Under the pieces are notes generated by a model. It ran no database searches, was not told the DNA's origin, and saw only the letters and a program-made list of their open reading frames with translations. Below are positions 1-53,893 of a stretch of 53,894 nt of DNA, piece by piece. The stretch is from a virus: positions 1-53,894 of the IMG/VR virus record IMGVR_UViG_3300020392_000021; one strand, written 5' to 3'. The position numbers and the translations under genes are program-made. The first letter of the stretch is position 1. Every line of letters begins with the position of its first letter.

Positions 1-54
1 ACCTTCTTCCATATCGTGACCTTCTTCCATATCGTGACCTTCTTCCATATCGTG
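1..54 (-). repeat. Perfect 18-bp tandem repeat, three copies visible
   Basis: The 18-base unit ACCTTCTTCCATATCGTG occurs three times in a row at 1-18, 19-36 and 37-54, followed by a degenerate fourth unit at 55-72. In the minus-strand frame it encodes HDMEEG repeats of the scaffold-like protein. The array may continue beyond the window. Confidence 0.95.
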
Positions 55-756
55 ACCTTCTTTCATGTCATCCATTTCATCTAGTTCTATTTCATACATT
101 ACTTCTTCGTCCATATGGTCATGTCCTTCTTCGTAACGTTTTCCACATCCTGCTTCCTCTTTCATACAATCTTTCTCTTCATCCATTTTGTCGTAAGATT
201 CTTCATAATGTTCGTCACCTTCTTTAATGTAATATTCTGCACCGGTTTCGTTATCTGTTAAGTGGATTCCGTCTGCGTCTTTAACAACCTCAACCTCGTC
301 TTCATCGCTCATTTTCTTAAATACTGCGATTACTTCTTCGTCTGATGCTCCAGTTAAATCTAATTCTTCTTCATCACCCATATCTAAATCTGAGGGTAAT
401 TCAGCAACATCTAATTCAACTTCATCATCATTATCTCCCGCTAAAGCGTCAAGATCAACATCTAAATCCATTAATTCTGACTCTTCTGAGTCTGCTTCTT
501 CAGCATCCCCTTCTGAATCGTCTCCAGCTTCTAACGCTGGCATTTCTTCCATTTCTTCATCGGACCCTTCCACATCGATATCTAGCTCTTCAGCTTCTTC
601 TTCATCTTGTTCTTTTAAAGATGACTCTACGATGTTCTCAATTTCTTGCTTCATATGATTGGCAAGCATTTCTTTCGTATTGGCTTTTAAGGCATCCTCT
701 AAAGACTTTGCTTCTAACAAAGCCTCTTCGATGATTGATTTTCTTTTTGTAGCCAT
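1..756 (-). CDS. Acidic prohead core/scaffold-like protein (partial, runs off the window)
   Basis: The reading frame is open for all 252 codons from the ATG at 756 to the window edge. The protein starts MATKRKSIIEEALLEAKSLE, has a helical N-terminal part and then a very Asp/Glu-rich body, ending at the edge in repeats of the hexapeptide HDMEEG. It lies directly downstream of the prohead protease, where T4 has the scaffold gene 22 followed by the capsid gene 23. Acidity, helix content and position all fit a scaffold core that gp21-like protease would digest; IIEEALLEA near the start offers possible cleavage sites. I recognise no domain, so the call rests on synteny and composition. The 3' end and the capsid gene are outside the window. 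Confidence 0.6.
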   Translation of the reverse strand, partial: MATKRKSIIEEALLEAKSLEDALKANTKEMLANHMKQEIENIVESSLKEQDEEEAEELDIDVEGSDEEMEEMPALEAGDDSEGDAEEADSEESELMDLDVDLDALAGDNDDEVELDVAELPSDLDMGDEEELDLTGASDEEVIAVFKKMSDEDEVEVVKDADGIHLTDNETGAEYYIKEGDEHYEESYDKMDEEKDCMKEEAGCGKRYEEGHDHMDEEVMYEIELDEMDDMKEGHDMEEGHDMEEGHDMEEG

Positions 757-870: not shown

Positions 871-1560
871 TTAATCTGACAGAAAATTATTTAATCCATC
901 TACTAGTAAATTCTTATCTGTTTTTTTAGATTCAGACATTTGTTGTTCTTCTTTAGATGGTGACTCATTATATATCCAAGATCCTGGTGTTGATGGTGAG
1001 GTAACTACATCCCAACAGATTAATTCAAAATCATCTTGAACAACATTTTTTCCGTTTTCTTTCTTTAATGAACCTACACCTCTAGAAGATACACCAATCT
1101 TTAAACCCTTTCTTAAAAGGTTTGCAACTTGATCACCTTCACATGAAATAATACCTTGTGTTACAAAACCTGGAGACATAATAATTTCTAATTTACCCAT
1201 CATCACATTTCCTTCCCACCACAATTCTGTAACGTTATGTGAAATTCTACTTATTGCAACAATAGAAGATTCTGGGTGATCAGCCTCCCCCATAGCTCTT
1301 TTTTCATTTATTAATTTCATATAATTTTCACCTTCTTTCTTAAGAATGTTTTCAGGATAAACTCTACCATTCCTATTTTCAACACCATATTTTTGTAATA
1401 CTGCATAAACAACCAAAGGTTCTTCAATAATTTGTTGACCTTTAGTTAGTTTATTTATTTCGTTAATAAAGTGTCTATTATCTTTAGGTGAAATATAACC
1501 AGCATCATACTCGACTAGTATACCTTTTTTATTTAGGTTATTGTTTTTTAAAATTTCCAT
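871..1560 (-). CDS. Prohead maturation protease, T4 gp21-like
   Basis: This 229-residue serine protease should process the prohead scaffold and every protein carrying an (L/I)-x-E site. The sequence shows the gp21 pattern in order: NGRVYPENIL (64-73), the GEADHP motif with likely catalytic His95, ISHNVTELWWEG (106-117), the IGVSSRGVGSL segment (155-165) with the candidate nucleophile Ser at 158/159, and WDVVTSPSTPG. It sits between portal and scaffold as in T4. The C-terminal tail is Ser/Lys-rich and may be removed on maturation. An ATATTTAT box precedes it by 20 nt. It is the likely processing enzyme for the leaders and polyproteins described elsewhere in the window. Confidence 0.9.
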   Translation of the reverse strand: MEILKNNNLNKKGILVEYDAGYISPKDNRHFINEINKLTKGQQIIEEPLVVYAVLQKYGVENRNGRVYPENILKKEGENYMKLINEKRAMGEADHPESSIVAISRISHNVTELWWEGNVMMGKLEIIMSPGFVTQGIISCEGDQVANLLRKGLKIGVSSRGVGSLKKENGKNVVQDDFELICWDVVTSPSTPGSWIYNESPSKEEQQMSESKKTDKNLLVDGLNNFLSD

Positions 1561-2042: not shown

Positions 2043-2120
2043 TCATAATTTCTTTATTTTAATGTTATTTATGTATAAAGATAATCATTTTATGTATATA
2101 TGTCAAATTAACGCTATTGC

Positions 2121-2150
2121 AAAAAAAAACTCACAACTTAGTGTGAGTTT
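2121..2150 (-). terminator. Rho-independent terminator after the small membrane protein
   Basis: A perfect 9-bp stem (AAACTCACA at 2127-2135 pairing with TGTGAGTTT at 2142-2150, 6-nt loop) is followed on the minus strand by a run of nine T. It lies 24 nt past the stop of the gene at 2174-2398. Confidence 0.85.
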
Positions 2151-2173
2151 ATATTTAGTTATTAATTATGTTG

Positions 2174-2398
2174 TTATTTTTTATTTAAGATATTCACTAA
2201 TACTACAACTGCTAGTAATCCAACAAATCCAGAGTTACCTAAAGATTCAATTAAATTAGTAACGTTACCTACTACGTCCATCCCAAATACTGCACCTCCG
2301 AAAAGTACTTGTACTAGAATACCGACACTTAAAAATGTCATTAATAGGTCAGTAATACCCGCGAAAAAACCTTTTACTTTGTTAAAAATTTCTTCCAT
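2174..2398 (-). CDS. Small membrane protein with two transmembrane segments
   Basis: The 74-residue protein has a charged start (MEEIFNKVKGFFAG), a hydrophobic stretch from about residue 12 to 40 rich in Leu, Val and Gly, and a second at about 55-71, ending NKK. The shape, two helices with a short turn, is seen in holin-like proteins and also in uncharacterised membrane proteins of T4-like head modules. Its place between portal and protease speaks for a role in prohead assembly at the membrane rather than lysis, but this is inference. A strong terminator follows it. Confidence 0.7.
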   Translation of the reverse strand: MEEIFNKVKGFFAGITDLLMTFLSVGILVQVLFGGAVFGMDVVGNVTNLIESLGNSGFVGLLAVVVLVNILNKK

Positions 2399-2417
2399 AA
2401 TATAAATTTATTTTTTG

Positions 2418-5236: not shown

Positions 5237-7030
5237 TTACTTTATACCAAATAACCAATTATATTCACCATTATCAGTATTATTATGGTTTTGTTTAGGA
5301 TTATAAGTAGGGGTATTACTATAAAATGGGTTAGTATGAATAGGTTTAGGTGTAATTTTATTACTACTGTTACTAACAGTTGTCCAACTATCTAACATTG
5401 CTCTTGTTTGATTTTCTGCCTGTTTTAATTTTTTAAACGTTGTTTGAACTACAAATAATGGCATTGCCAATGCCATTATGATATCATCATGATATCCATC
5501 CATATGATCGGGCCTACCATTTCTATAAACAAAAGTTTTTAATTCTGATATTAACCTAACAGAACGAATTATTGTTTTATTTTCTCTTATGTGTTCTTCT
5601 AAATCACTAACCATTTGTAATCTACTACTACCAACATTAAAACCAGGTACTTTATCACCTTGTTTATATAATGTTTTAACGTATTTCTCACTTAATTTTC
5701 TACTTTTAGGATCATCATAATGTAAATGTTCATACCCCATCTCTAATAATTTCATTACAGTAGAAACTCCCATACCACCTGTAATATCTACTACAGTATA
5801 TGCATTATATAAGTTACCATATTTATAAACTATTTCTGCCAATAGATCTGGAGGTAATTTATACTTAAATTCTGCAACTTGTTCTAAGTTTTCAAAATCC
5901 AATATTACAATAGTAGAGCTATCTTTCCCATCTCCTCTAGAAACATCTACACCCATAATATATTTATGTCCGTCTTCAGGTTCTTTCCATATCCACATAG
6001 ATTTTTCCATCTCTGCCTTATATTTTGGTTCTTGTACATTATTTTTTTCTTGAAACTCTATGTATTCTTCATCTATTACATTACCTCCTGAAGAAACAAA
6101 GGATACGTCTAATTCCTGTGCTATTTGTTTTTTGTCCCCATTCATATCTCTACACATTTCTTCATACCACGGAGAAGAACCTTTCCACCCATCTTTTACC
6201 ATCACATTATAGTCACTTATATCAATACTATTAGTTTCATATGTTTTACCACTGTATTCCCATCTCAATGTTTCTCTACCTACCGTTTCACATTCAATAA
6301 CTTCGTCTTCACCTCTTAACCATTTTAAACCCCTATTATATCTAATATCTTCATGCCACCTCATTTCGATTATATTGAAGTTATTATCACCTTGTTTAGC
6401 ACCATCATAAGTTTTATAGTATAATGCATCTTGTCCGTTAGGTGTTGAAATTAAAGTTACTTTACCACCTGTACCTAACGAAGTTAGTGCAGCACCAAAT
6501 ACTTCTGCTCCTTTATCGATAAATGCCGCTTCATCCATAACTAAAAATGTTGGTGTATACCCCCTTAATGCATCTTTAGAAGTTGCTAACGCTTTTACTT
6601 CACATTGAGTGTCTTTAGTTTTAATATGTCCCTTAGATTCAATAGATAAATAAGATTCATCTTCGTCTATTCCCCATACCCATGATGGTATTTGATCTAG
6701 GAAATCTTTTATTTTTTTAAGGAACTCTTGTGCTAATGTTTGTTTATTCGCTAATACTAGTACTTTCCATGGATTATTAGGATCACCAAATGCAATCTTT
6801 GCTGCAATATATGCTGCAGTGGTAGTTGATACACCAGCCTGTCTAGGTTTAGTTACAATATTACGATTGTATTTTTCGTATGAACTAATTATTTCTTTTT
6901 GTTTATGAAATAGTTTAAAAGGAACGAACCCTTTTTGAGTTAAGTCATAAGTTTTAAGAAATGTTTCTATTGCATATATTGGATCACCTAAACACTTCGC
7001 ATATAATTTTAATTTTTCACCTCTATCCAT
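5237..7030 (-). CDS. Terminase large subunit, T4 gp17-like
   Basis: This 597-residue packaging motor and nuclease translocates DNA through the portal and cuts concatemers. Visible ATPase motifs are Walker A-like KPRQAGVST (61-69), Walker B LVMDEAAFI (162-170) and the coupling motif STPNG (195-199). The RNase H-like nuclease domain shows GVDVSRGDGKDSS with Asp361, VVDITGGMG with Asp414 and YHDDIIMA with Asp514/Asp515. Length and motif order match T4 gp17. A low-complexity Asn/Thr/Pro tail precedes the C-terminal YNWLFGIK. An ATATTTAT box is 15 nt upstream. No small terminase subunit is recognisable in the window. Confidence 0.95.
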   Translation of the reverse strand: MDRGEKLKLYAKCLGDPIYAIETFLKTYDLTQKGFVPFKLFHKQKEIISSYEKYNRNIVTKPRQAGVSTTTAAYIAAKIAFGDPNNPWKVLVLANKQTLAQEFLKKIKDFLDQIPSWVWGIDEDESYLSIESKGHIKTKDTQCEVKALATSKDALRGYTPTFLVMDEAAFIDKGAEVFGAALTSLGTGGKVTLISTPNGQDALYYKTYDGAKQGDNNFNIIEMRWHEDIRYNRGLKWLRGEDEVIECETVGRETLRWEYSGKTYETNSIDISDYNVMVKDGWKGSSPWYEEMCRDMNGDKKQIAQELDVSFVSSGGNVIDEEYIEFQEKNNVQEPKYKAEMEKSMWIWKEPEDGHKYIMGVDVSRGDGKDSSTIVILDFENLEQVAEFKYKLPPDLLAEIVYKYGNLYNAYTVVDITGGMGVSTVMKLLEMGYEHLHYDDPKSRKLSEKYVKTLYKQGDKVPGFNVGSSRLQMVSDLEEHIRENKTIIRSVRLISELKTFVYRNGRPDHMDGYHDDIIMALAMPLFVVQTTFKKLKQAENQTRAMLDSWTTVSNSSNKITPKPIHTNPFYSNTPTYNPKQNHNNTDNGEYNWLFGIK

Positions 7031-9818: not shown

Positions 9819-11147
9819 TTACCACCATGTTCCACCACCAGATAAACCTAATTTCTTAGCGTATCTTGGTAACCTACAAGACCAATATCCTGCCTTACAT
9901 TTATCGTTATGTCTACCTTTAGAACAACCGTGTCTAGCGTTGTAAGATTTCTTAGCATCTTTATTACTTAACTTAGCCTTTAATCCACCAGAACCAAATC
10001 TAATTTGTTTTACTCCAGATGGGTTGGATTTGGTTTTATTAACACATCCACTTACATATACTCTATATGCTTTACCACCAGAAGAACTTCTTTGTGGAGA
10101 ATTAGTCTTTACTGTCTTACCTCTAAATTTTGCTTCAGTTAAAATTTCATTGTCTTCCATTGGGATATCTAGCCAAACTTCTTTACCCTCAAATACTGCT
10201 TTCCTACCAATATCTGTTTTAAGTAATTCTTCATCTAAATAAGATAAATTAACTTTATTACTACTATGTAATTTTCTTACTTCATTAATTAAATTAAAAA
10301 AAGATTCACTACCGTATCTATAAATGTTTTCTGATAAAGGTATTTGATTATCTAAATGATATCTTAATCCTTCACTAACAATTGTTCTGTTTTCAGTAAT
10401 CATCATTCTGTTGATGTTTACTGATTCATTCTTTTTAGATTTTCTCTTAGAAGATTTTCTTTTTCTTGGTTTGTAATTTTTTACTTTAATTGGGCTAGGG
10501 GATTGTCCTTTACCCGATTTACCATCATTCTTTTCTTTTTCTCTTTTACGTCTACATGCAGAATCTTTTGCAGACTGTGACATATTAGCCGCAACACTTT
10601 TTGCCCTACATACAGGATAACCTCCTTTATCTGAATCACTTCTTCCACATGTAGGGTGTCCACCACCTTTCTTTTTTCTACATATGTTTACCCATGGTCC
10701 TTGTGGTTGTTTACCCCCTTTTTTCTTTTTTTTTGTACCGAACCATACGGCTAAATCTTCGTCTAACCTTTCTACAACTTCTACCTCACCTATTTCGTAA
10801 GATTCATTTTTTTTCCCTCTACAGTAACTTCCACTACATTTTTTAGTACCATCTAAACCTTTTATTTTACCTTTACATACTTGAACTGCGTATCCATTAG
10901 CATAAGCAGATGGGTAAACATCAAACTTAGCCTTAGCAGCACTCTTACCTCTAGCACATAATGTATTTTTCTTTTTCTTAGATTTACTTCTTGTAGATTT
11001 ACGTTTTCGTGATTTACGTTTTTTTCTTCTTTTCTTTCTACCTTCGTCTATATGTTCTTCTTCTGAAAATAAACCGGTAGATTTACCATCAAAACGCATT
11101 TCATTTAAAACTCTTTTCAGTTGTGATTCTGTTAATTTAATTTTCAT
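9819..11147 (-). CDS. Highly basic, Cys-rich leader-tagged polyprotein
   Basis: The leader MKIKLTESQLKRVLNE gives a cut at Glu16. The 442-residue body has several modules: an Arg/Lys tract (37-60); CARGKSAAKAKFDVYPSAYA (64-83) with further Cys at 91, 104 and 109; a second Cys module (about 150-200); a linker with ITE|N (252) and LSE|N (273); and a C-terminal domain after LTE|A (338) that ends YWSCRLPRYAKKLG. The modules recall short basic Cys-containing domains in T4-like cyanophages (from memory, unverified). Charge and Cys pairs suggest zinc-bound DNA-binding units packed with the genome. An ATATTTAT box is 15 nt upstream, opening an operon down to 7072. Confidence 0.7.
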   Translation of the reverse strand: MKIKLTESQLKRVLNEMRFDGKSTGLFSEEEHIDEGRKKRRKKRKSRKRKSTRSKSKKKKNTLCARGKSAAKAKFDVYPSAYANGYAVQVCKGKIKGLDGTKKCSGSYCRGKKNESYEIGEVEVVERLDEDLAVWFGTKKKKKGGKQPQGPWVNICRKKKGGGHPTCGRSDSDKGGYPVCRAKSVAANMSQSAKDSACRRKREKEKNDGKSGKGQSPSPIKVKNYKPRKRKSSKRKSKKNESVNINRMMITENRTIVSEGLRYHLDNQIPLSENIYRYGSESFFNLINEVRKLHSSNKVNLSYLDEELLKTDIGRKAVFEGKEVWLDIPMEDNEILTEAKFRGKTVKTNSPQRSSSGGKAYRVYVSGCVNKTKSNPSGVKQIRFGSGGLKAKLSNKDAKKSYNARHGCSKGRHNDKCKAGYWSCRLPRYAKKLGLSGGGTWW

Positions 11148-24217: not shown

Positions 24218-24249
24218 TTTGGTAGATTAAAATATTTTTCTTATATTTG
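24218..24249 (+). promoter_or_regulatory. Host-type promoter for the first DUF2927-like gene
   Basis: TTTG (24218-24221), 20 nt, TATATTTG (24242-24249), then 15 nt to the ATG. Confidence 0.7.
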
Positions 24250-24255
24250 TATAAA

Positions 24256-24326
24256 TCAAACAATATGAAAAAGTTAATCACATTATTATTAGTATTAGTA
24301 ACACTAAACAGTTATAGTCAGTCTAA
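24256..24326 (+). repeat. 71-bp repeat, copy 1 (5' leader plus signal peptide)
   Basis: This segment matches 42686-42756 with only two mismatches by eye. It covers the end of the untranslated leader and the codons for the signal peptide of two paralogous secreted proteins. Confidence 0.9.
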
Positions 24327-24888
24327 GAGAGAAGTTTACGATTATTATGAAGAAATAACCCACTATACAGAGTGTTGTGGTAGAAAAAAACCGTGTAAAT
24401 TTGAGAAGGACGTTAAAATATATGTAGATGGCGTTAAAAAACCTTATTTAATAACAGAGTTGAATAAGATTGTTGGTGAATTGAATGATTTAATTGAATC
24501 AATTAATATTTCTATAGTTAATGATAGTTCAGAATCTAATGTTTATCTATTTTTTGGGAATGCTGACGATTTTGCAGATAATTTGAACGATTCTGATAGA
24601 TGGAAGAAACATATTAGAAAAAGAGCAAAAAAATGTAACGGACTTTTCGTAATCACAACAAATTATAATAAAGATTACATAAAACATTCCGAAGTATTTA
24701 TAGATTTAGAAGCGGGTAATAGTATCAACAAAGAAAAACATACACTACGAGAAGAAATTACACAATGTTTAGGACTAACTAACGATTCTTATAAATATGA
24801 TGATAGTATATTTTATCAATTAAATAATGAAGTGACAAAATATTCAAAAATAGATAAAAAGATTATTAAATTATTTTATAACGAATAA
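24265..24888 (+). CDS. Secreted DUF2927-like protein, paralogue 1
   Basis: The ATG at 24265 gives a clean signal peptide, MKKLITLLLVLVTLNSYSQS, typical of Bacteroidota. The mature part (about 187 residues) has CCGRKKPCKFEKDVKIYVDG, LNDLIESINISIV and the family-like TLREEITQCLGLTNDSYKYD followed by DSIFYQ, close to the EExTQxLGLxND pattern of DUF2927. In that family this region looks zincin-like, but here no full HExxH is visible. A near-copy lies at 42695-43291. It ends four bases before the convergent gene at 24892. Confidence 0.75.
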   Translation: MKKLITLLLVLVTLNSYSQSKREVYDYYEEITHYTECCGRKKPCKFEKDVKIYVDGVKKPYLITELNKIVGELNDLIESINISIVNDSSESNVYLFFGNADDFADNLNDSDRWKKHIRKRAKKCNGLFVITTNYNKDYIKHSEVFIDLEAGNSINKEKHTLREEITQCLGLTNDSYKYDDSIFYQLNNEVTKYSKIDKKIIKLFYNE

Positions 24889-30156: not shown

Positions 30157-30414
30157 TTAAATTGAATTAATTAACAAATCTAATCTATTACTTTTTTTTT
30201 CTACTCTTGATAAAACATCTTTAAAAACCTTTTTATCATTTTCTTTGTCAGTAATTCTATATTTAATCTCATCGATTAAAGTTTTTTCATTTAACATATA
30301 TAATTCATCTAATATGTTATCATAGTTTATCCATTTTCTTTTTATTTCTGTTCTCGCACCTTTAATTTGTTCAAACACAAATACTTTATAGCTATGTTCT
30401 AATTCTTCACCCAT
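30157..30414 (-). CDS. Small helical hypothetical protein
   Basis: I prefer the ATG at 30414 (85 codons), MGEELEHSYKVFVFEQIKGA, because it shares its A with the stop of the upstream hydrolase gene (TAATG), a layout repeated elsewhere in the window; an ATG 27 nt upstream is in frame. The protein is charged and helical with no known domain. Coupling to the wall hydrolase suggests a partner or regulator, but this is not shown. Confidence 0.55.
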   Translation of the reverse strand: MGEELEHSYKVFVFEQIKGARTEIKRKWINYDNILDELYMLNEKTLIDEIKYRITDKENDKKVFKDVLSRVEKKSNRLDLLINSI

Positions 30415-31241
30415 TATCTTCCAGTAAAATTTTTGGACCATTTAGTTGTAGTATCCCTACCAAAGATATGATCTAAACCTTTAGGTGGGTGAGGTATCCA
30501 AGTTTTACTTTCTTGTCCCCATGGTGGTTCTATTTTATTTGGGTTATAATAATGTGTTGCACCTTTAGTGTTATCAGAAATATTACCACCACCTAAAAGT
30601 AGTTTTGCGTATTTAACCGCCAATTCCCAAGATTTTCTATTTTGATACCTATCATCATTAGGTCTATTCATCATAATATTCTTCATAGTCTCATTATCCC
30701 TACTAACTGGTTGGTGTTTGTTCCATCCTGAGAATTGTTTGGGTTCTAAAACGACATCTACCACACTACCTCTCCCTGCTTTACTTCTGTTTAATATTAC
30801 ATTTGCAATACCTTTTATGTCCGATTCTTTATCTTCTGATTCTTCCATAACAAAATTTATTGCTAATATTAATTCATTTAATGATAGGGTAGGTGGTTTT
30901 TTAAACCCTAATTTCCCTAAAGTTTTTGGTCCAATAGATACAGTACTTAAATCTTTAAATTTAACATCAAATAACTTACCTATCATTCTAGATGTTCTAT
31001 CACCGAAGTCTTTATCTGCACGAAAACCAATTTCTTCTGCAAATTTAGGAAATTTATCGTATAATTTTTGTTGTACTAGATTTAAAGGTCCTAAATCATT
31101 AGTTTGGTAGTCACCGTGATTCAAAGTATCGAAACCGTACCATATATCTTTGAGTGAAACGTAAGTTTTATCTACTTTATCACTAGTTTTTTCACTAATA
31201 ATTAGTTTTTTTAATTGTTTTTCTGTTAAATAAACCCTCAT
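30414..31241 (-). CDS. Leader-tagged cell wall hydrolase, SleB-like, with peptidoglycan-binding-like domain
   Basis: The leader MRVYLTEKQLKKLIISE ends at ISE|K (17). Residues about 45-115 (LNLVQQKLYDKFPKFAEEIG to SIGPKTLGKLGF) look like a peptidoglycan-binding domain. The C-terminal half has ELILAINFVMEESEDKESDI, GIANVILNRSKAGRGSVVDV, VLEPKQFSGWNKHQ and DNTKGATHYYNPNKIEPPWG, the SleB/hydrolase_2 pattern of lytic transglycosylase-like or amidase enzymes. A leader on a wall hydrolase implies packaging in the virion and use at entry rather than at lysis. The box at 31268-31275 precedes it. Confidence 0.78.
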   Translation of the reverse strand: MRVYLTEKQLKKLIISEKTSDKVDKTYVSLKDIWYGFDTLNHGDYQTNDLGPLNLVQQKLYDKFPKFAEEIGFRADKDFGDRTSRMIGKLFDVKFKDLSTVSIGPKTLGKLGFKKPPTLSLNELILAINFVMEESEDKESDIKGIANVILNRSKAGRGSVVDVVLEPKQFSGWNKHQPVSRDNETMKNIMMNRPNDDRYQNRKSWELAVKYAKLLLGGGNISDNTKGATHYYNPNKIEPPWGQESKTWIPHPPKGLDHIFGRDTTTKWSKNFTGR

Positions 31242-32395: not shown

Positions 32396-32800
32396 ATGAA
32401 ATTTATAGATATTTTAAATGAAATGGTTAAACACCCCTTCCCAAATAAAAAAAACGTTGTTATAAAAAATAGTGATGATAATGACGTTACTATTGAGTGT
32501 GAATATGCGCAAACAAGTAAACAAAAAATGACTGGTGCTTTAGGGATGGATTCTATGTGTGATTATTGTGGTATATTATTCGATGAAATATCACCCACAT
32601 ATTACCATATGCAAGGTGTAAAATTTCCATTAGATATGATTTTTTGTGATAGTAATGGTACTATTTTAGATATTGTTACTGCAGAACCTGATGGTGAGAA
32701 CGTATATCCACCAGATGGTTCAAAATATAATATAGAAGTTAATGGTGGTTTCTGTAATAAAAATAATATAAATAAAGGAGACGTTATTTACGTTTCATAA
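32396..32800 (+). CDS. DUF192-family protein with short leader
   Basis: The 134-residue protein begins MKFIDILNE|M, a minimal (L/I)-x-E leader. The rest matches DUF192: KMTGALGMDSMCDYCGILFD, YYHMQGVKFPLDMIFCDSNG, TILDIVTAEPDG and NIEVNGGFC with a final GDVIYVS. DUF192 is a small beta-barrel family of unknown function, often exported. Two Cys (CDYC) form a possible metal or disulphide pair. The 3' end overlaps the convergent zincin gene by 13 bases. Confidence 0.8.
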   Translation: MKFIDILNEMVKHPFPNKKNVVIKNSDDNDVTIECEYAQTSKQKMTGALGMDSMCDYCGILFDEISPTYYHMQGVKFPLDMIFCDSNGTILDIVTAEPDGENVYPPDGSKYNIEVNGGFCNKNNINKGDVIYVS

Positions 32801-33657
32801 ATTTCAGGATTCTCTCTACCATATTTACGAACAAGTTCTCCGGCTTTTGCATTTGCTTCATCTTCCCACGGTGAACCATCTTCACCTTCTTCTTTTCTAC
32901 CTGTTAATTCACCTCTCTCATTTTGTTTATGGTGAACTAATTCATGTGCAACAGAACGAATGATATCTGGTAAAGCTCTATCTTTACCTAATACTGTTAC
33001 TTCATTATTGTTAATATCGTAACTTGCCAATGTTTCTACATCGTCAGAATCATTTGTAATATCTACGGTAAAGTTATCATCTAATTCTAAATCACCACTT
33101 ACAAAATCAACAAAATCATCTATTTTATCTTCCGTTAACTCTAATCGTCCAATAACACCTCTACTGCTTTCACCTCTTTTGATTATTTTAATTTTATCAT
33201 GTGGTAATAAAACTTTTAAAGTTCTACCATTTTCCCAATTAATCCATAAATGTTCTTCAGGTATACCTGAAATAACTTGTGAGTCTATTCTAGTTACTAC
33301 ACCCTTTGTTCCTGGTAGTATCGGGTTTGGATCTTCTCCCTCCATTTCAATCATTTCAATGGTGTCCCCAACCATTGGATAATCATCGTTATACAAATAT
33401 CTAACAAATTTATCTAAAATAGGTTTAATTAAATCCTCATTTTCAAAATACTCTAAACTATAAACATCCTCAATATGTGGTATGGCAGCATTATTAATAA
33501 TATTCTTAATTGCCTTTATACAGTTATAATATTCAGGCCCCCAATCATAAATTAATATTTCTTCGTTAAATGTATTAACTAAATCATCAAATATTACATC
33601 ACTTAGTGATCTTTGTTGTGTTTCTTCTTTAAGTATTTTTCTGATGAGAGATTTCAT
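32788..33657 (-). CDS. Leader-tagged zinc metalloprotease-like protein
   Basis: The leader MKSLIRKILKE|E cuts at 11. The 289-residue protein has an SH3/KOW-like middle (GTKGVVTRID, then HLWINWENGRTLKVLLPHDK), an internal site LELTE|D (176), and a C-terminal zincin: SVAHELVHHKQ with the HExxH pair His238/Glu239/His242 and a likely third ligand Glu in EDEANAKAG (267). Cutting at 176 would free the protease domain. If packaged, it could attack a host protein on entry. It is the last of a run of four genes sharing the IRKILKEE leader. Confidence 0.78.
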   Translation of the reverse strand: MKSLIRKILKEETQQRSLSDVIFDDLVNTFNEEILIYDWGPEYYNCIKAIKNIINNAAIPHIEDVYSLEYFENEDLIKPILDKFVRYLYNDDYPMVGDTIEMIEMEGEDPNPILPGTKGVVTRIDSQVISGIPEEHLWINWENGRTLKVLLPHDKIKIIKRGESSRGVIGRLELTEDKIDDFVDFVSGDLELDDNFTVDITNDSDDVETLASYDINNNEVTVLGKDRALPDIIRSVAHELVHHKQNERGELTGRKEEGEDGSPWEDEANAKAGELVRKYGRENPEIYET

Positions 33658-36680: not shown

Positions 36681-36838
36681 ACAACACAACCACCGATTAT
36701 GATGATTCAGTAAAAAAAATGGAGTGTACTGACATTATAGAAGGTTATTTATTAGATAACTATCCACACATATATAATACAATAACTAGAAGAGAAATAA
36801 AACTTTGGGTTGAGAAATATTTAGAGACTAATAAGTAA
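36677..36838 (+). CDS. Small hypothetical protein (53 residues)
   Basis: The ATG overlaps the preceding stop (ATGA) and encodes MNNTTTDYDDSVKKMECTDI followed by IEGYLLDNYPHIYNTITRRE and IKLWVEKYLETNK. It is acidic then helical. The last 11 bases overlap the end of the convergent polyprotein gene. Function is unknown; coupling to the two upstream genes supports reality. Confidence 0.6.
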   Translation: MNNTTTDYDDSVKKMECTDIIEGYLLDNYPHIYNTITRREIKLWVEKYLETNK

Positions 36839-38630
36839 GTTTTTGTCCGTGATAATCTTCTAAGTAAGATATTAAATCTTCGTGATAAGGTTTAAAGTCT
36901 TCCTTAGTCCACCCATCAAAAAAACCTTCATCCTTTAATGTGGCTTCGTATGCTCTTTTACCTCTAAAAAATCTTGATTCACTACCAGCACCTAAATAAT
37001 CTATTTTACCATATCTAGACCATTTAAGTATATCTATATAGTCTTCTATCTTTCTTAGATCATAATCTCTTGTTAGATAACTACCCCAGTCTTCTTCTCT
37101 AATTATTAATGAGGGGGTATACTCTAAATCCCAATCACCGATTAAAACGCTATTCATAGAATTTAAACGATTACTTTTAAATATATGGTAAAGTGCTGCA
37201 TTATATACATCTTCAACCTCGCTATAATTTAATCCATATATATCACCATAAAAGTCTCTAAATCTATTGAATAACCAGTCCCCTCTTAACTTATTTAATA
37301 TCCCTTGTTTTTCTACCCTAACTGGTGCAACATTATCATCGTAAGTAGGTTCTACCATCTCATTAAAATTCCAAAACCTATCATCTTCACTTATAGAGTC
37401 AATCACTTTTTTTTTAACTTTATCTAAATAGTCTGTCTGTTTAGTAGATTCCGCCAATATCCATTCCTCATTCCAATCCTCCCAATCTTCATCTCTTTGG
37501 TAATTATTTATTTGTTCTATAATTTCATCACTTAATATTTCGGATATTATAGGTACGGTAGGATCATCATCTCCTGATAATAAACTTTGTTTCTTTAAAT
37601 ATTGTTTAACTAATTCAGGTATATTTCTTCTGACTACATCTATACTATCTTTTGTTAATCCTGTTTTATCGTTCCATCTATATAATAATTGTGGTAGATT
37701 ATTACCACCCTCAAAACCTAACCCATTAAAATCAAATAAAACTTTAAAGGATCTTAAAAGAGTCATTTTTAAAATGTCAGTAACTATTCTATTTATAAAT
37801 CCATTCTTATGATATATTTTACCTACATTCTGTCTAATCTGAGGTGCGGTTTGTTCAGTTAATGAAGAACGAAGATTAACCAACTTTCTTACATAACCTT
37901 TATCTTTTGCAATTTTATATGTATTTTGTGTTAATTTTTTCGCAATGGGTGCAACCATCGGATCATCAAAGTGTCTGTTGGTTATTCTTTTTGGTACACC
38001 TATACCCATTGTTTTAAATAGATAATATGCAACTAAGTTAGATAAAGTACTCAATACAAATTCATAATCAAATATTCCTACATTACTGTGATAAGGATCA
38101 TAATAAAAATCAACATTTCTACTAAGATCACTATCTCTAAACCCATAATCTATAGTATTAAAATTTATACTCTCTTTACTGTATCTAAAATTCTTTTCAA
38201 TATCCCTAACCACCTTATCAATTAATGACTCAATATTTTTATTTTCTCTCATAACAATAGGGGCATCTGGTGTATCATCTTCTTTAAGATATCTATTATA
38301 AAGTTTAGGTATAAAAAATCTAGCCAAAACATTTATTATATCTTTAAGGTTAAAATATCCATAATGATCCTCAAAAATAATAAAAAAGTCATTAAGTGTT
38401 TGGCTAACTATATCCCTAGTTAATTCCATTAATGGTTGGTAACTTTGACGAATTCTTTCTAAATCATCTTTAGATAAACTATAATGCACACTATTTTTCT
38501 CATCAAACCCAAACCAGACATTATAATCAGTATCCCCATCTTCTTCTGAAGGAGGACTTACATAAATATTATTCATCAGTTCATCTGCAACTTTCTCTAA
38601 GAATTTATATGAATTAGATTGTGTTTCCAT
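36828..38630 (-). CDS. Polyprotein of diverged FLDKV/YGL repeat units
   Basis: The 600-residue protein begins METQSNSYKFLEKVADELMN. Candidate protease junctions VMRE|N (129), SLTE|Q (259) and ILAE|S (394) split it into segments of about 129, 130, 135 and 206 residues. Each starts near a FLxKV-like helix (FLEKVADEL at 10, SLIDKVVRDI at 135, YLDKVKKKV at 401), and YGLNYSEVEDVYNAALYHIF in the last segment is the family's second motif. The units have no domain name I know. An ATATTTAT box lies six bases upstream. It has no separate N-terminal leader, so units may reach the capsid through the repeat itself. Confidence 0.72.
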   Translation of the reverse strand: METQSNSYKFLEKVADELMNNIYVSPPSEEDGDTDYNVWFGFDEKNSVHYSLSKDDLERIRQSYQPLMELTRDIVSQTLNDFFIIFEDHYGYFNLKDIINVLARFFIPKLYNRYLKEDDTPDAPIVMRENKNIESLIDKVVRDIEKNFRYSKESINFNTIDYGFRDSDLSRNVDFYYDPYHSNVGIFDYEFVLSTLSNLVAYYLFKTMGIGVPKRITNRHFDDPMVAPIAKKLTQNTYKIAKDKGYVRKLVNLRSSLTEQTAPQIRQNVGKIYHKNGFINRIVTDILKMTLLRSFKVLFDFNGLGFEGGNNLPQLLYRWNDKTGLTKDSIDVVRRNIPELVKQYLKKQSLLSGDDDPTVPIISEILSDEIIEQINNYQRDEDWEDWNEEWILAESTKQTDYLDKVKKKVIDSISEDDRFWNFNEMVEPTYDDNVAPVRVEKQGILNKLRGDWLFNRFRDFYGDIYGLNYSEVEDVYNAALYHIFKSNRLNSMNSVLIGDWDLEYTPSLIIREEDWGSYLTRDYDLRKIEDYIDILKWSRYGKIDYLGAGSESRFFRGKRAYEATLKDEGFFDGWTKEDFKPYHEDLISYLEDYHGQKLTY

Positions 38631-42685: not shown

Positions 42686-42756
42686 TCAAACAATATGAAA
42701 AAGTTAATCACACTATTATTAGTATTACTAACACTAAACAGTTATAGTCAGTCTAA
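42686..42756 (+). repeat. 71-bp repeat, copy 2 (5' leader plus signal peptide)
   Basis: Matches 24256-24326 with two mismatches by eye. Confidence 0.9.
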
Positions 42757-43291
42757 AGAAGAAATAGAAAATTATTTAGACACTATCATACATTATGTAG
42801 AAGGAAATGATAATAAATATATACCAACCAAATACTCAGAAGATGTTAAGATATATGTAGATGGTGATAAGAAACCTTATTTGTTAACAGAATTAGATAA
42901 AATTATAAACGAATTAAATGATTTAATTACCACAATAAATTTTAGTTTAGTAGAAAGTAAATCTAAATGTAATATGTATATATATTTTGGTGATGTTAAA
43001 GGGTATTCTAAAATAAGTGAAGATGTTTTAAGTAAAAAAAATGTTAACGGTTTTGGTGAAATTTATCCTGATCTAGATTATAATATAATTTATACATCAA
43101 TATTTATCAATATCGGTAAAGTTAAGGACATTAAAAGACAAAAACATGTTCTTAGAGAGGAAGTTACACAATCATTAGGGTTAACTAATGATACTTATCA
43201 ATATTTTGATAGTATGTTTTATCAAGGGTACTCTAATGTTACCGAATATTCTAATTTAGATAAAGAAATAATTAAATTATTTTATAACTAA
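42695..43291 (+). CDS. Secreted DUF2927-like protein, paralogue 2
   Basis: The 198-residue protein has the same signal peptide as its paralogue at 24265 (MKKLITLLLVLLTLNSYSQS) and the same layout: KYSEDVKIYVDGDKKPYLLT, LDKIINELNDLITTINFSLV and HVLREEVTQSLGLTNDTYQY followed by DSMFYQ. The mature halves have diverged much more than the signal region. Export to the periplasm or surface is expected. It converges with 43288 with a four-base overlap. Confidence 0.75.
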   Translation: MKKLITLLLVLLTLNSYSQSKEEIENYLDTIIHYVEGNDNKYIPTKYSEDVKIYVDGDKKPYLLTELDKIINELNDLITTINFSLVESKSKCNMYIYFGDVKGYSKISEDVLSKKNVNGFGEIYPDLDYNIIYTSIFINIGKVKDIKRQKHVLREEVTQSLGLTNDTYQYFDSMFYQGYSNVTEYSNLDKEIIKLFYN

Positions 43292-44811: not shown

Positions 44812-46077
44812 ATGAGTAAAATTTTATTATTGTTATTATTATTATTACCTGTAATGATTTTAACACAAACACCGTGTGCTACAGATGAATATAATAAACC
44901 CTTTATTGAAGAAAATCCACAAAGGTACGATAAAATAGAAAAAGATATACAAAACTATTTAAGAAGTCCGCAAAAGAAATCAGAAAATAGTTATATAATT
45001 CCAGTTGTAGTTCATATAGTCTATAACGATTGGAGAGAAAATCTTCATGACTCTATAATCTATCAACAATTAAAGGTTTTAAATGATAGATTTAACCTTA
45101 GAAACGCTGATACAGTATTATTAACTGATACCCTACAGAATTGGAAAGGTAATTTTAAAATATCATTTGAGTTGGCACATATTGATCCTGAAGGATATCC
45201 AACTACAGGAATTACAAGAACTAAAACAAATGTTGGTGAATTTTCTTATTATAGTAATAATGTTAAAAAATCAAGTCAAGGAAAAGTGGGTTGGCCAAAC
45301 GACAGATATCTTAATATTTGGATATGCGACCTCTATGATGGATTGATGGGTTATGCACAATTTCCTGGCGGTGAAGACTGGTCGGATGGAGTTGTTGTAG
45401 ATTGGCAAAGTGTTGGGGATAGAGTCTATTCTTGGACTTATCCAATGTTCAATAAATGGGCAAAAGGACATGTCCTTGTTCATGAAATAGGACATTGGTT
45501 AAACCTTCATCATCCTTGGGGAGATTGGGGTCCATGTGGAGAAGACTATATTCCAGAGACAGGTTTACAAGATGGACCTATTTACCCAAGTGCTGAATGT
45601 CCAGATACCCTATTTAGTCAATGTGATACACCAGAAAGGGTGTTTGTAAAACATTATATGGACTATGTAGGTGCAGATTGTATGTGTACTTTTACAAAAA
45701 ATCAAGTTGTTAGAGGTATTGCATCTTTGGAAACCTATAGAATAGATCTATTAAATAATTATGTACCAAAGCCACAGTTAACTGGTTTTGAGAATACGGT
45801 AGTTAGACCATCATTTACTAAAGGTAGAGTTATTTTACAATTTCCAGACTATGAAGGAGAACTACAAATCATAATTTATGATATGTTAGGGAGAATAGTT
45901 TATAGAGAATATACTACATTTCCATTTATTGATATGAGATTAAAATTAACTAACGGTAGTTACTTAATAGATGTACTTAAAAAAAGTGAAAGAGTATTTC
46001 AAAGAAAGATTATAATTAATAGTGCGTCACCATACGGTGCTAGTTTAAAACCAATAATAAATAAAGATAAAATTTAA
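44812..46077 (+). CDS. Secreted M43-type (pappalysin-like) metalloprotease with T9SS-like sorting domain
   Basis: The 421-residue protein has a signal peptide (MSKILLLLLLLLPVMILTQT), the propeptide-like YIIPVVVHIVYND, and the zinc motif VHEIGHWLNLHHPW with His224, His228 and His234 and catalytic Glu225. HYMDY supplies the Met-turn. Cys residues are spaced as in secreted M43 enzymes. The last ~80 residues (GRVILQFPDYEGELQIIIYD, MLGRIVYREYTTFPFIDMRL, TNGSYLIDVLKKSERVFQRK) resemble a type A T9SS C-terminal domain of Bacteroidota. This looks host-derived and would exit via host machinery. No promoter of either class is obvious upstream. Confidence 0.88.
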   Translation: MSKILLLLLLLLPVMILTQTPCATDEYNKPFIEENPQRYDKIEKDIQNYLRSPQKKSENSYIIPVVVHIVYNDWRENLHDSIIYQQLKVLNDRFNLRNADTVLLTDTLQNWKGNFKISFELAHIDPEGYPTTGITRTKTNVGEFSYYSNNVKKSSQGKVGWPNDRYLNIWICDLYDGLMGYAQFPGGEDWSDGVVVDWQSVGDRVYSWTYPMFNKWAKGHVLVHEIGHWLNLHHPWGDWGPCGEDYIPETGLQDGPIYPSAECPDTLFSQCDTPERVFVKHYMDYVGADCMCTFTKNQVVRGIASLETYRIDLLNNYVPKPQLTGFENTVVRPSFTKGRVILQFPDYEGELQIIIYDMLGRIVYREYTTFPFIDMRLKLTNGSYLIDVLKKSERVFQRKIIINSASPYGASLKPIINKDKI

Positions 46078-46443: not shown

Positions 46444-47451
46444 TTAATATCCTCTTGTGAATGAGTCCCAGTACTCTTCAGTCTTCTCCCATATCTCACC
46501 CTGTAATGAACCCCAAATACGATTCCATTCACTACCACTGATTCCATACATATCTTCTATGTGATTCATTAAGTCAACATGCCAGTTAGTATTTGGTGAA
46601 CTAATATCATTAGTAAATGCATCGTCTGCAGAAACCGCAGATAAAAAATCATCGTCCCTAATACTAGCGGAATAATCTATCATAGGGAAATAAACAAGTC
46701 CTCTATCAAAGTCCCACACTATTTCTTTAAGAACTCTGTCAGTAACCTTTTCAACGTATGCTAAATCAATACCTTCATCTAATCTAGGTCTGGTTTTATA
46801 AGATAAATCGAAAAACCTCTTAAAGTATTTTTCAAAGATATCATTAAAATACCAATACATTACCTCTTCTATTTCATCAATTTCTGTAATACCAAACATG
46901 TCTAAATATCTGGTGAAAATCTTACCCATAGTAAACTCATCATCAAAATTATCAACCATCTTTTTACAATAGTGTGCACTCAATACAAATACATTTCCTG
47001 TTTGTCTATCGGCAATAAATGGTGTTATAACACTAGCACCAGTTTCATTAAAGGGTTTAGTCTCATCTATCATCGTATCTACAACTTTTTGTAGGAATTC
47101 TGTTTGTTTATCTATTTTAGATTCTCTTAGGTAATCAACATGTACTCTTAGATATGGTGATACATGTTCTTTTTTGGATAGTACCATATTAATAATATGT
47201 TCATCATACTTATCCCAAAATAATTCTTCTATTTCATTATAGGTTAATCCCCAATAATCTTTTAGATAATTTTCTAAACATTCTGGTATATAGTTAAAAT
47301 AAGGTGCTTCACTTCCCCAACGAATACCAACTTGTAAACTTTTACACTTACCATCATATAAGTCTATTTCTTTATAAGATGCATCTCTGAATTTAGTATT
47401 CTTAACTAAATCATTATAAACATATTCTAAATATTCTTTTTGTTTATCCAT
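46444..47451 (-). CDS. Polyprotein of three FLDKV/YGL repeat units
   Basis: The 335-residue protein splits at YLRE|S (110) and RLDE|G (226) into units of about 110, 116 and 109 residues. Each begins with a FLxKVxDxLxKET-type helix (YLEYVYNDLVKNTKF at 8; FLQKVVDTMIDETKP at 119; YVEKVTDRVLKEIVW at 232) and ends with the second motif (YLKDYWGLTYNEIEELFWDK; YLDMFGITEIDEIEEVMYWY; HIEDMYGISGSEWNRIWGSL). The even size and sites exactly between units are strong signs of a processed polyprotein. It overlaps the leader-tagged gene 47444 by eight bases. Confidence 0.78.
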   Translation of the reverse strand: MDKQKEYLEYVYNDLVKNTKFRDASYKEIDLYDGKCKSLQVGIRWGSEAPYFNYIPECLENYLKDYWGLTYNEIEELFWDKYDEHIINMVLSKKEHVSPYLRVHVDYLRESKIDKQTEFLQKVVDTMIDETKPFNETGASVITPFIADRQTGNVFVLSAHYCKKMVDNFDDEFTMGKIFTRYLDMFGITEIDEIEEVMYWYFNDIFEKYFKRFFDLSYKTRPRLDEGIDLAYVEKVTDRVLKEIVWDFDRGLVYFPMIDYSASIRDDDFLSAVSADDAFTNDISSPNTNWHVDLMNHIEDMYGISGSEWNRIWGSLQGEIWEKTEEYWDSFTRGY

Positions 47452-48715: not shown

Positions 48716-51004
48716 TTATATTTTTTCAATATCTAAATATTTTGCCCCTCTACCTTTATTCTTTAAAGTTATTTCTTTTTCATGAGGATAAAGGATATTA
48801 TTATTTAATGTCTCCATTACATCTACTTCACTTTTAGGTACTTTAACAGTTATTAAATATGCATCTTCTCCTTGTCTGTGTCCGTATATACTACCTCTAT
48901 TATAATGGTTATTAATTAAGTCTGTTCTGTCTTGTGAATAATGACTACCTAATTCATCGTAATTTATTTGATTTCCATCATCTAAGTAAAGTACTCTATA
49001 TAGAAATAATTCTTCTGGTAAATCTTTTACCCACGTAATTAATTCTCCTAATTCTTCTGATGCAATTTCTGGTGGAGTACCCATATCCCCAAAAGATTGT
49101 AATAGTGATTTATGTTCATCACCAGTTAAATTTTGTTCCGTTATAATTGCATCATCAGGAATATCGGGCAAACCTGGATTCACAAGTTTTAATTTTTTTC
49201 TTCTTAATTTATCTTTATACATTTCCCATAAAAATGCACTTTCTCTGGCTTGTGCAATACTATTACCTGTAGGAAACATTATTTGGTTATCACCCACCCC
49301 ATATATATCATCTACGTATTTCTCAAAACTACTGTGCCTATAGTCATTTATAAATACATCGTATTCAAATTTTCCGAAAGGAGTAAATACAATAAAACCA
49401 CCATCCTGAAAAACTTCATCGGATTCTAGTTTAGTTTCTTTATCTAACCTATCTACTACATTTTTTAAATACCTAATTTCTTTACTATCAATTCTTCTAT
49501 AGAATGGTACGTTGATGTCCGTACTTAATATATCAATACCTTTAGCCTTTAATAAATTTATGTTTTGTTCTCTAGCCCTTTCATCCCAATCCTCATAATG
49601 TTGTTCTCTTAATGAACCATAATGTTTTTTATGTTTTTCATTATACACCAAAATATTTTTAGCATTTAAACTGTCCCATACAAGATCTGATACCATTTCT
49701 GTCTCTGCCTTTGTTAACCCATATGTATCTTTTGAGTGTTTTTCTAAACCAACCCAAAAACCTCTACCACCTGTAGACATATCACTCCACGAACCGAATC
49801 CCCTAACTTTAAAATTGTCGTTGGAAATTTCTATTTCTTTCATAATAGAGTCTGCAACTTTATATAGATATTTAAGATCCATTCCTTTAGGTTTTTCTGT
49901 AGATTCATTAAGTCCTTTTTGGTAATAGTAATTGGTTTTAATTTCATAGAAGTAATTATTCCATACATAATCAATTTCTTCATCGGTTAACCCATAAACA
50001 TCTCTACAATGCTTTATTGTGTGGGTTAAAAATCTATTGTACAAATAATCTAAATGATCAAACATTTTTATCGCATTCCATTTTTCATCTGGATTACCTG
50101 GTATACTTATCATATCTCCACTGTAAGAAGTATATATAATAGTCTCCTTAACAAGTTGTTCAATAACCCTATCTAAGAATCTTCCTTGTTTATCTATAGA
50201 TTCATTTAAACTACCACCAATTTCAAATACCTCATCACCTCTAAACCATTCTTCTGATTTACTGGTAGGTATTTTATCATCTTCATTCATTTCTAAATAA
50301 CTTTTATAAATATTATTATAAAGTGTAGTATAATAGTTAAAAATGACTTCTTGTATTTCTTCAGAATTTAGTCCATATATATTAGTTAGATGATCTTCTT
50401 CGTAGTCTTCTATGTATTCTTCTTTTCTTTTTTTTCTTTTAAGTGCACTGTTTTTTACCGAGTCCATAGAAAAAACTTCAATAGGTTCTCCTGTTCGTGT
50501 ATTAGTAAGTGCAAAAATTATTTCTACTCGTGTTACTTTTTTAATATCTGTAGCGAAATCTTTATTTTCCCATATTCTATACATTGATTCTTTAAGTAAT
50601 CTATCTACAACCTTGTCTAAAAAATCTTTTTGTGTGTCATTTGATTCGGTTAAGATATTTTCTTCTTCACCTTGTGTTTTAACAATTTGTTTAAGAATAA
50701 AATAATAAACATGATGTAATTCATTTAACTCATTTTCTGGTACTTCATACTTCTCTATATAGTTAACACTTTTACTTGGTGATTCTAACTCATAATCTCC
50801 ATCATAATTAAAATGAAGTACAGAACTCCTTGATGGATATTTGTGATTATGTACTAACTTAGATCGGTGCAATAAGTCTTTAAGGATTTCTCTATAATAT
50901 TTATAGTTAAGGTATTTACTCCAGTATTCTCCCAGCACATTATCCCTAACATCATCTAAGATGTCATCGAACCATGCATCATACATATGTTTACTATTAT
51001 CCAT
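48716..51004 (-). CDS. Repeat polyprotein ending in an ADP-ribosyltransferase-like domain
   Basis: The 762-residue protein has candidate prohead protease sites at ILTE|S (120), SLNE|S (268), GLNE|S (367), SLRE|Q (467) and IITE|Q (623). Segments 2-5 carry the unit motifs (FLDKVVDRLLKES 128-140; FLDRVIEQLVKET 276-288; YLYKVADSIMKEI 379-391; YLKNVVDRLDKET 512-524, and IYGLNSEEIQEV, VYGLTDEEIDYV, TYGLTKAETEMV). The last 138 residues look like an ART fold: LFLYRVLYLDD (Arg670), ELGSHYSQD (STS-like, 684-692), AYLITVKVPKSEVDVMET and YPHEKEITLKNKG with the ExE pair Glu742/Glu744. T4 Alt is a capsid-packaged ART, so this is a plausible functional counterpart. A leaderless-type box is seven bases upstream. 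Confidence 0.75.
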   Translation of the reverse strand: MDNSKHMYDAWFDDILDDVRDNVLGEYWSKYLNYKYYREILKDLLHRSKLVHNHKYPSRSSVLHFNYDGDYELESPSKSVNYIEKYEVPENELNELHHVYYFILKQIVKTQGEEENILTESNDTQKDFLDKVVDRLLKESMYRIWENKDFATDIKKVTRVEIIFALTNTRTGEPIEVFSMDSVKNSALKRKKRKEEYIEDYEEDHLTNIYGLNSEEIQEVIFNYYTTLYNNIYKSYLEMNEDDKIPTSKSEEWFRGDEVFEIGGSLNESIDKQGRFLDRVIEQLVKETIIYTSYSGDMISIPGNPDEKWNAIKMFDHLDYLYNRFLTHTIKHCRDVYGLTDEEIDYVWNNYFYEIKTNYYYQKGLNESTEKPKGMDLKYLYKVADSIMKEIEISNDNFKVRGFGSWSDMSTGGRGFWVGLEKHSKDTYGLTKAETEMVSDLVWDSLNAKNILVYNEKHKKHYGSLREQHYEDWDERAREQNINLLKAKGIDILSTDINVPFYRRIDSKEIRYLKNVVDRLDKETKLESDEVFQDGGFIVFTPFGKFEYDVFINDYRHSSFEKYVDDIYGVGDNQIMFPTGNSIAQARESAFLWEMYKDKLRRKKLKLVNPGLPDIPDDAIITEQNLTGDEHKSLLQSFGDMGTPPEIASEELGELITWVKDLPEELFLYRVLYLDDGNQINYDELGSHYSQDRTDLINNHYNRGSIYGHRQGEDAYLITVKVPKSEVDVMETLNNNILYPHEKEITLKNKGRGAKYLDIEKI

Positions 51005-53587: not shown

Positions 53588-53893
53588 TCAATATCTTCCA
53601 TTTAACTTTAATAAAATTATATCAATATATTTTTTAAGAGTGTATGATACTTCTTCTTTAGATAAACCATATATGTTTTTAACATGTAATCGAAAATTAT
53701 GAGATAATTTACTTACAGGAAAAAATCTCCTAGTTTGTAATTCTATATTAATCTGATTAAATACATCCTCCGGAAATACCGAATCATAAAATGGTGTTCG
53801 TATGAATTTAAATCTTTTATGTTTAGATAACTCTGTTTCAGATGCTATCCGATCCGCCACCTTATCTAAATATTTTTTAACGTTATCTTCCAT
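53588..53893 (-). CDS. FLDKV/YGL repeat-unit protein, possibly partial
   Basis: The 101-residue frame runs from an ATG one base inside the window edge: MEDNVKKYLDKVADRIASET, ending HVKNIYGLSKEEVSYTLKKY and a short tail. It is exactly one unit of the repeat family and the start resembles METQS, MDNSK and MDKQK of the other family members, so it may be complete. It could equally be the last unit of a longer polyprotein whose start lies outside the window. Confidence 0.65.
   Translation of the reverse strand: MEDNVKKYLDKVADRIASETELSKHKRFKFIRTPFYDSVFPEDVFNQINIELQTRRFFPVSKLSHNFRLHVKNIYGLSKEEVSYTLKKYIDIILLKLNGRY

What the first reader, a model, noticed from the sequence alone, without database searches (positions are those of the whole stretch)
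48716..51004. Polyprotein of repeat units with protease sites exactly between units, ending in an ART-like domain
Five (L/I)-x-E|S/Q sites at residues 120, 268, 367, 467 and 623 fall at the unit borders, and the last frees a 138-residue domain with ART features (LYR near 670, LGSHYS near 687, HEKE with Glu742/744). T4 Alt is a packaged ADP-ribosyltransferase that modifies host RNA polymerase after injection. A phage polyprotein that delivers an ART together with several copies of an unknown repeat domain would be a new arrangement.
Basis: partly seen in the sequence, partly recalled or inferred. Interest (0 to 1): 0.92.

Follow-up and report, generated by a model that had tools for sequence, protein, structure and literature searches.

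The report
Phage polyprotein of packaged effector modules
A T4-like virus of (probably Bacteroidota) bacteria makes a long chain of small repeated protein modules ending in a predicted ADP-ribosyltransferase, with cutting sites for the virus's own head-maturation protease exactly between the modules, which suggests a new way to load and inject many effector proteins at once.

Summary
The 762-aa ORF has (L/I)xE|S/Q after residues 120, 268, 367, 467 and 623, each at a module border. Four of the six segments (121-268, 269-367, 368-467 and the core of 468-623) belong to one new repeat family; 1-120 does not, and 624-762 is a separate C-terminal domain. Two orthologs (360 and 1039 aa) lose or gain modules between the same sites. 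The unit family recurs as multi-unit polyproteins (up to 8 units) in two distant freshwater phages: 45 of 49 unit-unit linkers carry the motif, 13 times its density in unit cores. The same motif occurs at the presumed propeptide site of relatives' Gp23 capsid proteins and in related prohead-core proteins; the window encodes the S77 prohead protease. AlphaFold2 gives the last domain an ART-like fold (pLDDT 85.7); the 50 VIA-align rows are mostly ART-superfamily proteins (best Z 5.5), with R670, H688, E742, E744 invariant. Best reading: a T4-type internal-protein polyprotein, cut in the prohead and injected, delivering an ART and several copies of an unknown domain. Cleavage, packaging and catalysis are inferred; this ORF lacks the usual targeting leader. 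Nothing similar was found in 50,697 phage records or the papers searched.

The parts
48716..51004 (-). polyprotein ORF, 762 aa (P0001)
   Evidence: orthologs L003 and L002
50645..51004 (-). segment 1 (aa 1-120), not of the repeat family, no recognisable leader
   Evidence: 92.5% identical in L003, absent from L002
50642..50653 (-). site LTE|S (aa 118-121)
50201..50644 (-). repeat unit A (aa 121-268)
   Evidence: HMM; alignment A4
50198..50209 (-). site LNE|S (aa 266-269); L003 carries an extra 59-aa module between two such sites here
49904..50200 (-). repeat unit B (aa 269-367), AF2 model helix-hairpin-helix-helix with unstructured ends
49901..49912 (-). site LNE|S (aa 365-368)
49604..49903 (-). 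repeat unit C (aa 368-467)
49601..49612 (-). site LRE|Q (aa 465-468)
49136..49603 (-). segment 5 (aa 468-623): ~37-aa extension plus repeat unit D (core ~504-623); present twice in L003
49133..49144 (-). site ITE|Q (aa 621-624)
48719..49135 (-). predicted ADP-ribosyltransferase domain (aa 624-762); invariant R670, H688, E742, E744
46444..47451 (-). second polyprotein, three repeat units, sites LRE|S (110) and LDE|G (226)
36828..38630 (-). third protein with repeat units (about aa 5-152 and 395-505, the latter after LAE|S 394)
53588..53893 (-). single stand-alone repeat unit (101 aa), without leader
871..1560 (-). prohead core serine protease (Peptidase_S77, T4 gp21-like), the presumed cutter
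   Evidence: Pfam 2.4e-24, PHROG head maturation protease 3.2e-43
1..756 (-). prohead core/scaffold-type protein (cut off by the contig end); homologs carry INE|SVDRK
   Evidence: role inferred from position between protease and Gp23

Best explanation
The gene encodes a cargo polyprotein of a T4-like phage. It is made with the head proteins, enters the prohead core, and the phage's gp21-like (S77) prohead protease cuts it after Glu at the five (L/I)xE|(S/Q) sites, freeing four or five small internal proteins (four of one repeat family) and a 139-aa ADP-ribosyltransferase, all then injected with the DNA, as T4 Alt and the T4 internal proteins are. Shown by sequence: the sites, the unit family, gain and loss of whole modules at the sites, the same motif at the presumed Gp23 propeptide border and in core proteins of relatives, and the protease gene. 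Predicted: the ART fold. Inferred: actual cutting, packaging, injection and ADP-ribosylation of host proteins. The target and the function of the repeat unit are unknown; injected host-takeover or anti-defence proteins are the likeliest guess.
For: Sites and chance tests. Module indels edged by the sites in two orthologs. 45 of 49 linkers with [LIVMF]xE[SQ] (the other four read ITE|R, TNE|S and LDE|G twice), 4.1 per 100 residues in linkers against 0.31 in cores. Eight- and four-unit polyproteins with INE|SVDRK/SVDNK borders in G003 and G005. In the same genomes single units follow a leader ending at the same place (MKNVIKKILKE|E.., MKIIITENQFKRLINE|SV..). Gp23 of G003/G005 reads ..ASALLNE|STSSDSSG after 60 residues, of G001 ..LLNE|ATD. 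Core-protein homologs carry PINE|SVDRK. S77 protease in the window, G001, G003, G005. Borders are unstructured in the unit model. ART; a relative has the domain fused behind a Pfam ART-PolyVal domain. L002's short version begins MKKGKDNILTE|S, a leader of T4 length. About 23 of 68 gene-like ORFs in the window carry leader-like N-termini by a loose regex. T4 precedents: PMC9026906, PMC12373910, PMC9503650.
Against: P0001 and several other polyproteins have no recognisable capsid-targeting leader, and in G003/G005 the ART copy is a separate leaderless gene, so this ART family is not always head cargo. The unit-border motif may partly be inherited by duplication, so the 49 linkers are not independent, and G003/G005 share many of them. 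ART structural scores are modest (Foldseek best E 0.04, VIA Z 5.5) and no sequence profile reaches a known ART family. The Ser of a classical STS motif is not conserved (V in two relatives). No cleavage or proteome data exist.
Confidence: 0.74

Rival explanations
1. An uncut multidomain effector ('polyvalent protein'): the modules work as one chain, and LxES is only a flexible linker that also serves as a recombination junction.
For: Polyvalent phage proteins with ARTs, up to 12 ART copies in one chain, are described (PMC5512222); the linkers are unstructured; modules recombine at these points.
Against: Linkers differ in length (11-80 aa) and sequence, yet the xE| motif is kept in nearly all, and it matches the presumed protease sites of Gp23 and the core protein of relatives. 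A plain linker need not keep Glu.
Confidence: 0.12
2. The protein is cut by the prohead protease but the units serve head assembly (core filling, size control, internal scaffolding) rather than being injected effectors; the ART is a passenger.
For: Border sequence shared with the prohead-core protein; most listed unit segments have an acidic calculated pI; many copies per genome.
Against: Units are highly divergent and vary in number between phages, unlike core proteins; a predicted host-modifying enzyme in the same chain fits effectors better.
Confidence: 0.09
3. The gene is expressed early and never enters the head; the ART acts like T4 ModA/ModB and the LxES motifs are fortuitous.
For: No leader on P0001; leaderless stand-alone ART genes in related phages.
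Against: It lies on the same strand as terL, portal and protease, among leader-bearing genes; motif enrichment; the L002 ortholog has a short leader ending in LTE|S.
Confidence: 0.05

Closest known systems
T4 Alt (packaged ADP-ribosyltransferase cut by gp21)
   Same: ART predicted to be loaded into the head of a T4-like phage and freed by the gp21-type protease after a short-motif Glu; T4 Alt loses a 7-residue propeptide and is also cut at its C-terminus (PMC9026906)
   Different: The Alt ART clade uses R-S-E (PMC5512222); here a 139-aa domain with R/GxH/ExE and no Pfam match sits at the end of a repeat polyprotein; target unknown
T-even internal proteins IPI-IPIII with capsid targeting sequence
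   Same: Small, variable, injected proteins behind a shared N-terminal leader cut by the prohead protease (PMC9026906, PMC12373910); leader-bearing single units exist in G003/G005
   Different: IPs are one protein per gene; here up to eight related units per gene with internal sites, unrelated sequence, and mostly acidic by calculated pI
Polyvalent proteins of phages and conjugative elements (PMC5512222)
   Same: Several domains, often ARTs, in one virion-delivered chain
   Different: Release there is ascribed to embedded peptidase domains; here a separate structural protease would do it, and most modules are paralogs of one domain
phiKZ/SPN3US head and inner-body proteins
   Same: Many head proteins cut after Glu by a gp21-like protease (PMC10052503, PMC9026906)
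   Different: The passages read describe propeptide removal from single proteins; no series of mature repeat units from one gene was found in them

Membership tests
Substrate of a T4-type (S77) prohead protease | gp21/S77 protease encoded in the same genome | tested here: met
   window 871-1560 -, Pfam Peptidase_S77 2.4e-24; also G001, G003, G005
Substrate of a T4-type (S77) prohead protease | (L/I)xE| motif at domain borders, matching the phage's own capsid and core protein | tested here: met
   Gp23 and full core protein examined in relatives, since the window is cut off before Gp23
Substrate of a T4-type (S77) prohead protease | cleavage observed | not testable with these tools
   no proteome data
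ART superfamily | ART fold | tested here: met
   AF2 pLDDT 85.7, pTM 0.80; the 50 VIA rows are mostly ART-superfamily proteins, best Z 5.5; Foldseek best E 0.04. A predicted-fold match only
ART superfamily | conserved Arg on strand 1 and catalytic Glu (ExE) | tested here: met
   R670, E742 and E744 invariant in 11 sequences
ART superfamily | curated profile match (Pfam) | tested here: not met
   no ART family hit; one relative is fused to ART-PolyVal, 37.6 bits over cut-off
ART superfamily | NAD-dependent transfer | not testable with these tools
   needs an enzyme assay
T4 Alt/VIP2 clade | R-S-E active site with STS serine, sequence similarity to Alt | tested here: inconclusive
   R and E present, the serine position varies (V in L017 and L042); no direct comparison with Alt made
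Polyvalent-protein ART (Tox-ART-HYD2) | H-Y-D active site | tested here: not met
   R / GxH / ExE instead (definition from PMC5512222)
T4 internal protein with capsid targeting sequence | short N-terminal leader ending at the protease site | tested here: inconclusive
   absent from P0001; MKKGKDNILTE|S in L002; leaders on single units in G003/G005; many neighbours have leaders

The most novel reading that the evidence does not exclude
A phage counterpart of viral polyproteins: T4-like phages of Bacteroidota evolve by adding, losing and shuffling effector modules between prohead-protease sites in long genes, so one gene loads up to eight paralogous injected proteins, and sometimes an ADP-ribosyltransferase, into each head.
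Probability: 0.6. Interest if true: 0.85.

Novelty: new variant of a known kind. Interest (0 to 1): 0.76.

Why it matters
T4 injects a handful of internal proteins, each from its own gene. If modules are strung together and released by the structural protease, a phage can change its set of injected proteins by simple recombination at protease sites, and the LxE|S signature becomes a way to find injected effectors in uncultured phages. It also adds a predicted ART domain and a repeat domain that no library searched here holds, in genomes with an expanded injected arsenal (leader-bearing genes are frequent throughout the window).

Tried and rejected
Pfam, PHROGs, NCBIfam and PDB sequence profiles for P0001, its ART domain or units: no usable hit among those run. 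tblastn of P0001, the ART relative P0002, unit B, two G003 proteins and the leader peptide against 50,697 phage records: none significant. Unit fold search: best VIA hits Cas12k at Z 5.2 over 68-75 residues, within the noise stated by the tool, and no Foldseek viral match with E <= 0.001; no assignment made. Alignment A4 was too divergent for a collection scan. INESVDRK DNA pattern: besides G003/G005 it found core-protein homologs (kept as evidence) and one unrelated protein, L112. Host: a T9SS sorting tail just under NCBIfam's cut-off suggests Bacteroidota; the guess that ORF 2062-2259 is phage bS21 was wrong. Paper searches for prohead-processed phage polyproteins found none, but subscription journals and preprints are mostly not held.

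Full report
Location and genome. The window is an IMG/VR virus record (G000, 53,894 b, probably a fragment). It encodes T4-type head genes on the minus strand: terminase (5237-7030), portal (3226-5184) and a Peptidase_S77 prohead protease (871-1560; Pfam 2.4e-24, PHROG head maturation protease 3.2e-43). The nearest isolates by terminase, about 29% identity, include Flavobacterium phage Immuto. The host is unknown; a metalloprotease gene with a T9SS-like tail just below NCBIfam's cut-off suggests Bacteroidota.

Observation. The ORF is on the minus strand, 762 aa. [LI]xE[SQ] occurs after residues 120, 139, 268, 367, 467 and 623; five of the six are the reported sites and lie one in each linker. 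Shuffled compositions average 1.0 such motifs (P(>=6)=0.00035), and the concentration in linkers has p=0.0014, with linker limits set partly by eye. A profile HMM places one repeat family at 121-268, 269-367, 368-467 and ~505-623, with E-values inflated because these units were in the seed. Residues 1-120 do not score, and 468-623 has a ~37-aa extension before its unit.

Orthologs. In IMG/VR two close relatives were found. L003 (contig of 159.6 kb) has 1039 aa with an extra 59-aa module between LNE|S and LNE|S and a second copy of segment 5. L002 (64 kb contig, also filed in a Prochlorococcus single-cell assembly) has 360 aa: an 11-residue start MKKGKDNILTE|S, the same 59-aa module, segment 5 and the ART. 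In the alignment the gained or lost blocks run from site to site. The neighbouring second polyprotein (46444-47451, three units) likewise gains an N-terminal unit in L003.

The family elsewhere. The unit profile found 20 and 15 places in G003 (126.6 kb) and G005 (253.9 kb), which first came up through their separate ART genes. There, genes of 189-846 aa hold two to eight units joined by INE|SVDRK, INE|SVDNK, MNE|SVERK and the like. Over the window and G001, G002, G003 and G005, 45 of 49 unit-unit linkers contain [LIVMF]xE[SQ]; the other four read ITE|R, TNE|S and LDE|G (twice). Density is 4.1 per 100 residues in linkers and 0.31 in cores. The linkers are not independent (paralogs; G003 and G005 share many). 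Single-unit or two-unit genes in the same genomes begin with leaders (MKNVIKKILKE|EVDN.., MKRIIREILKE|EVDN.., MKIIITENQFKRLINE|SVN..) whose end takes the same place in front of the unit.

What cuts there. The Gp23 capsid protein of G001 (Pfam Gp23, 245 bits) reads QASALLNE|ATDAASSG, and those of G003 and G005 read QASALLNE|STSSDSSG and STSADSSG after 60 residues; T4 Gp23 loses a 65-residue propeptide (PMC9026906). A scan of viral contigs for the INESVDRK DNA pattern also returned L113 and L116, homologs of the prohead-core-type protein beside the protease, with PINE|SVDRK and KINE|SVDRK near their C-termini; the G001 copy has PITE|SVENK. So the border motif of the polyproteins recurs where prohead-protease sites are expected. 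No cleavage was measured.

The C-terminal domain. Twenty-two viral loci encode relatives: as the polyprotein end, after a unit-like stretch plus INE|S (L030), after LNE|G (L040), behind a Pfam ART-PolyVal domain in one leader-bearing protein (L042), or alone, with or without a leader (L017, L027). Invariant in 11 sequences: LYR (R670), GxH (H688) and YPxExEIxLK (E742, E744). No family library or PDB sequence matched convincingly. AF2: pLDDT 85.7, pTM 0.80. Foldseek: ParT first (E 0.04), then IcmQ, CNFy and cholera A among its leading rows; VIA-align: mostly ART-superfamily proteins, best Z 5.5 (TreX). Scores are modest, but the agreement of many different ARTs, with Arg on the first strand and ExE at a late strand, makes an ART fold likely. 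Activity and target are unknown.

The repeat unit. AF2 for unit B: pLDDT 87.4, pTM 0.80; helix, hairpin, two long helices, with unstructured ends holding the sites. No convincing relative by fold or sequence. Most listed unit segments have an acidic calculated pI; other phage proteins were not compared, so this is a weak hint only.

Mechanism. Most likely the chain is packed into the prohead core and cut by the S77 protease, and the pieces are injected, as for T4 Alt and the internal proteins (PMC9026906, PMC12373910, PMC9503650). Shown: sites, modularity, motif match, protease gene. Predicted: ART fold. Inferred: cutting, packaging, injection, host modification. Unexplained: how a leaderless chain such as P0001 enters the prohead.

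Known relatives. It works like T4 internal proteins plus Alt, but one gene carries many units. Polyvalent proteins (PMC5512222) share the multi-domain delivery idea, but their release is ascribed to embedded peptidases and their ARTs to an H-Y-D class. No paper on phage polyproteins of this kind was found; the library lacks many journals.

Noticed in passing
window 7072-53444, many genes on the minus strand: About 23 of 68 gene-like ORFs carry leader-like N-termini (LTESDLKRIVKRxLxE, IRKILKEE, KLKRExxxE, N(D/K)MRRLMGL; loose regex), which suggests a large set of packaged proteins.
   Followed up: partly
L009:1459-1986 and 1988-2458 (minus): Two adjacent leader-bearing genes in G002; the 175-aa one is a distant copy of this ART domain, the 156-aa one has LYR and ESE and may be another ART (no Pfam ART hit).
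   Followed up: partly
L042:4302-5423: A leader-type start (MKLTKIYEEVLRE|S), a Pfam ART-PolyVal domain and this ART domain in one 373-aa protein.
   Followed up: partly
window 44812-46077 (+): M43-type metalloprotease with a T9SS-like sorting tail (just under NCBIfam's cut-off), conserved in G002; looks host-derived.
   Followed up: partly
window 32788-33657 and 30414-31241 (minus): Leader-bearing HELVHH metalloprotease-like protein with a DUF4314 match, and a leader-bearing cell wall hydrolase (PF07486): possible further head cargo.
   Followed up: no
window 9819-11147 (minus): Leader followed by a very Lys/Arg-rich stretch and several internal LxE motifs; possible packaged DNA-binding protein.
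   Followed up: no
L002 / L047 (QCKH01000009.1): This phage contig is filed inside a Prochlorococcus single-cell assembly, probably a co-sorted or misassigned virus.
   Followed up: no
window 24247-24888 and 42695-43291 (+): Two paralogous proteins with signal-peptide-like starts (MKKLITLLLVL.TLNSYSQSK), on the strand opposite to the head genes.
   Followed up: no
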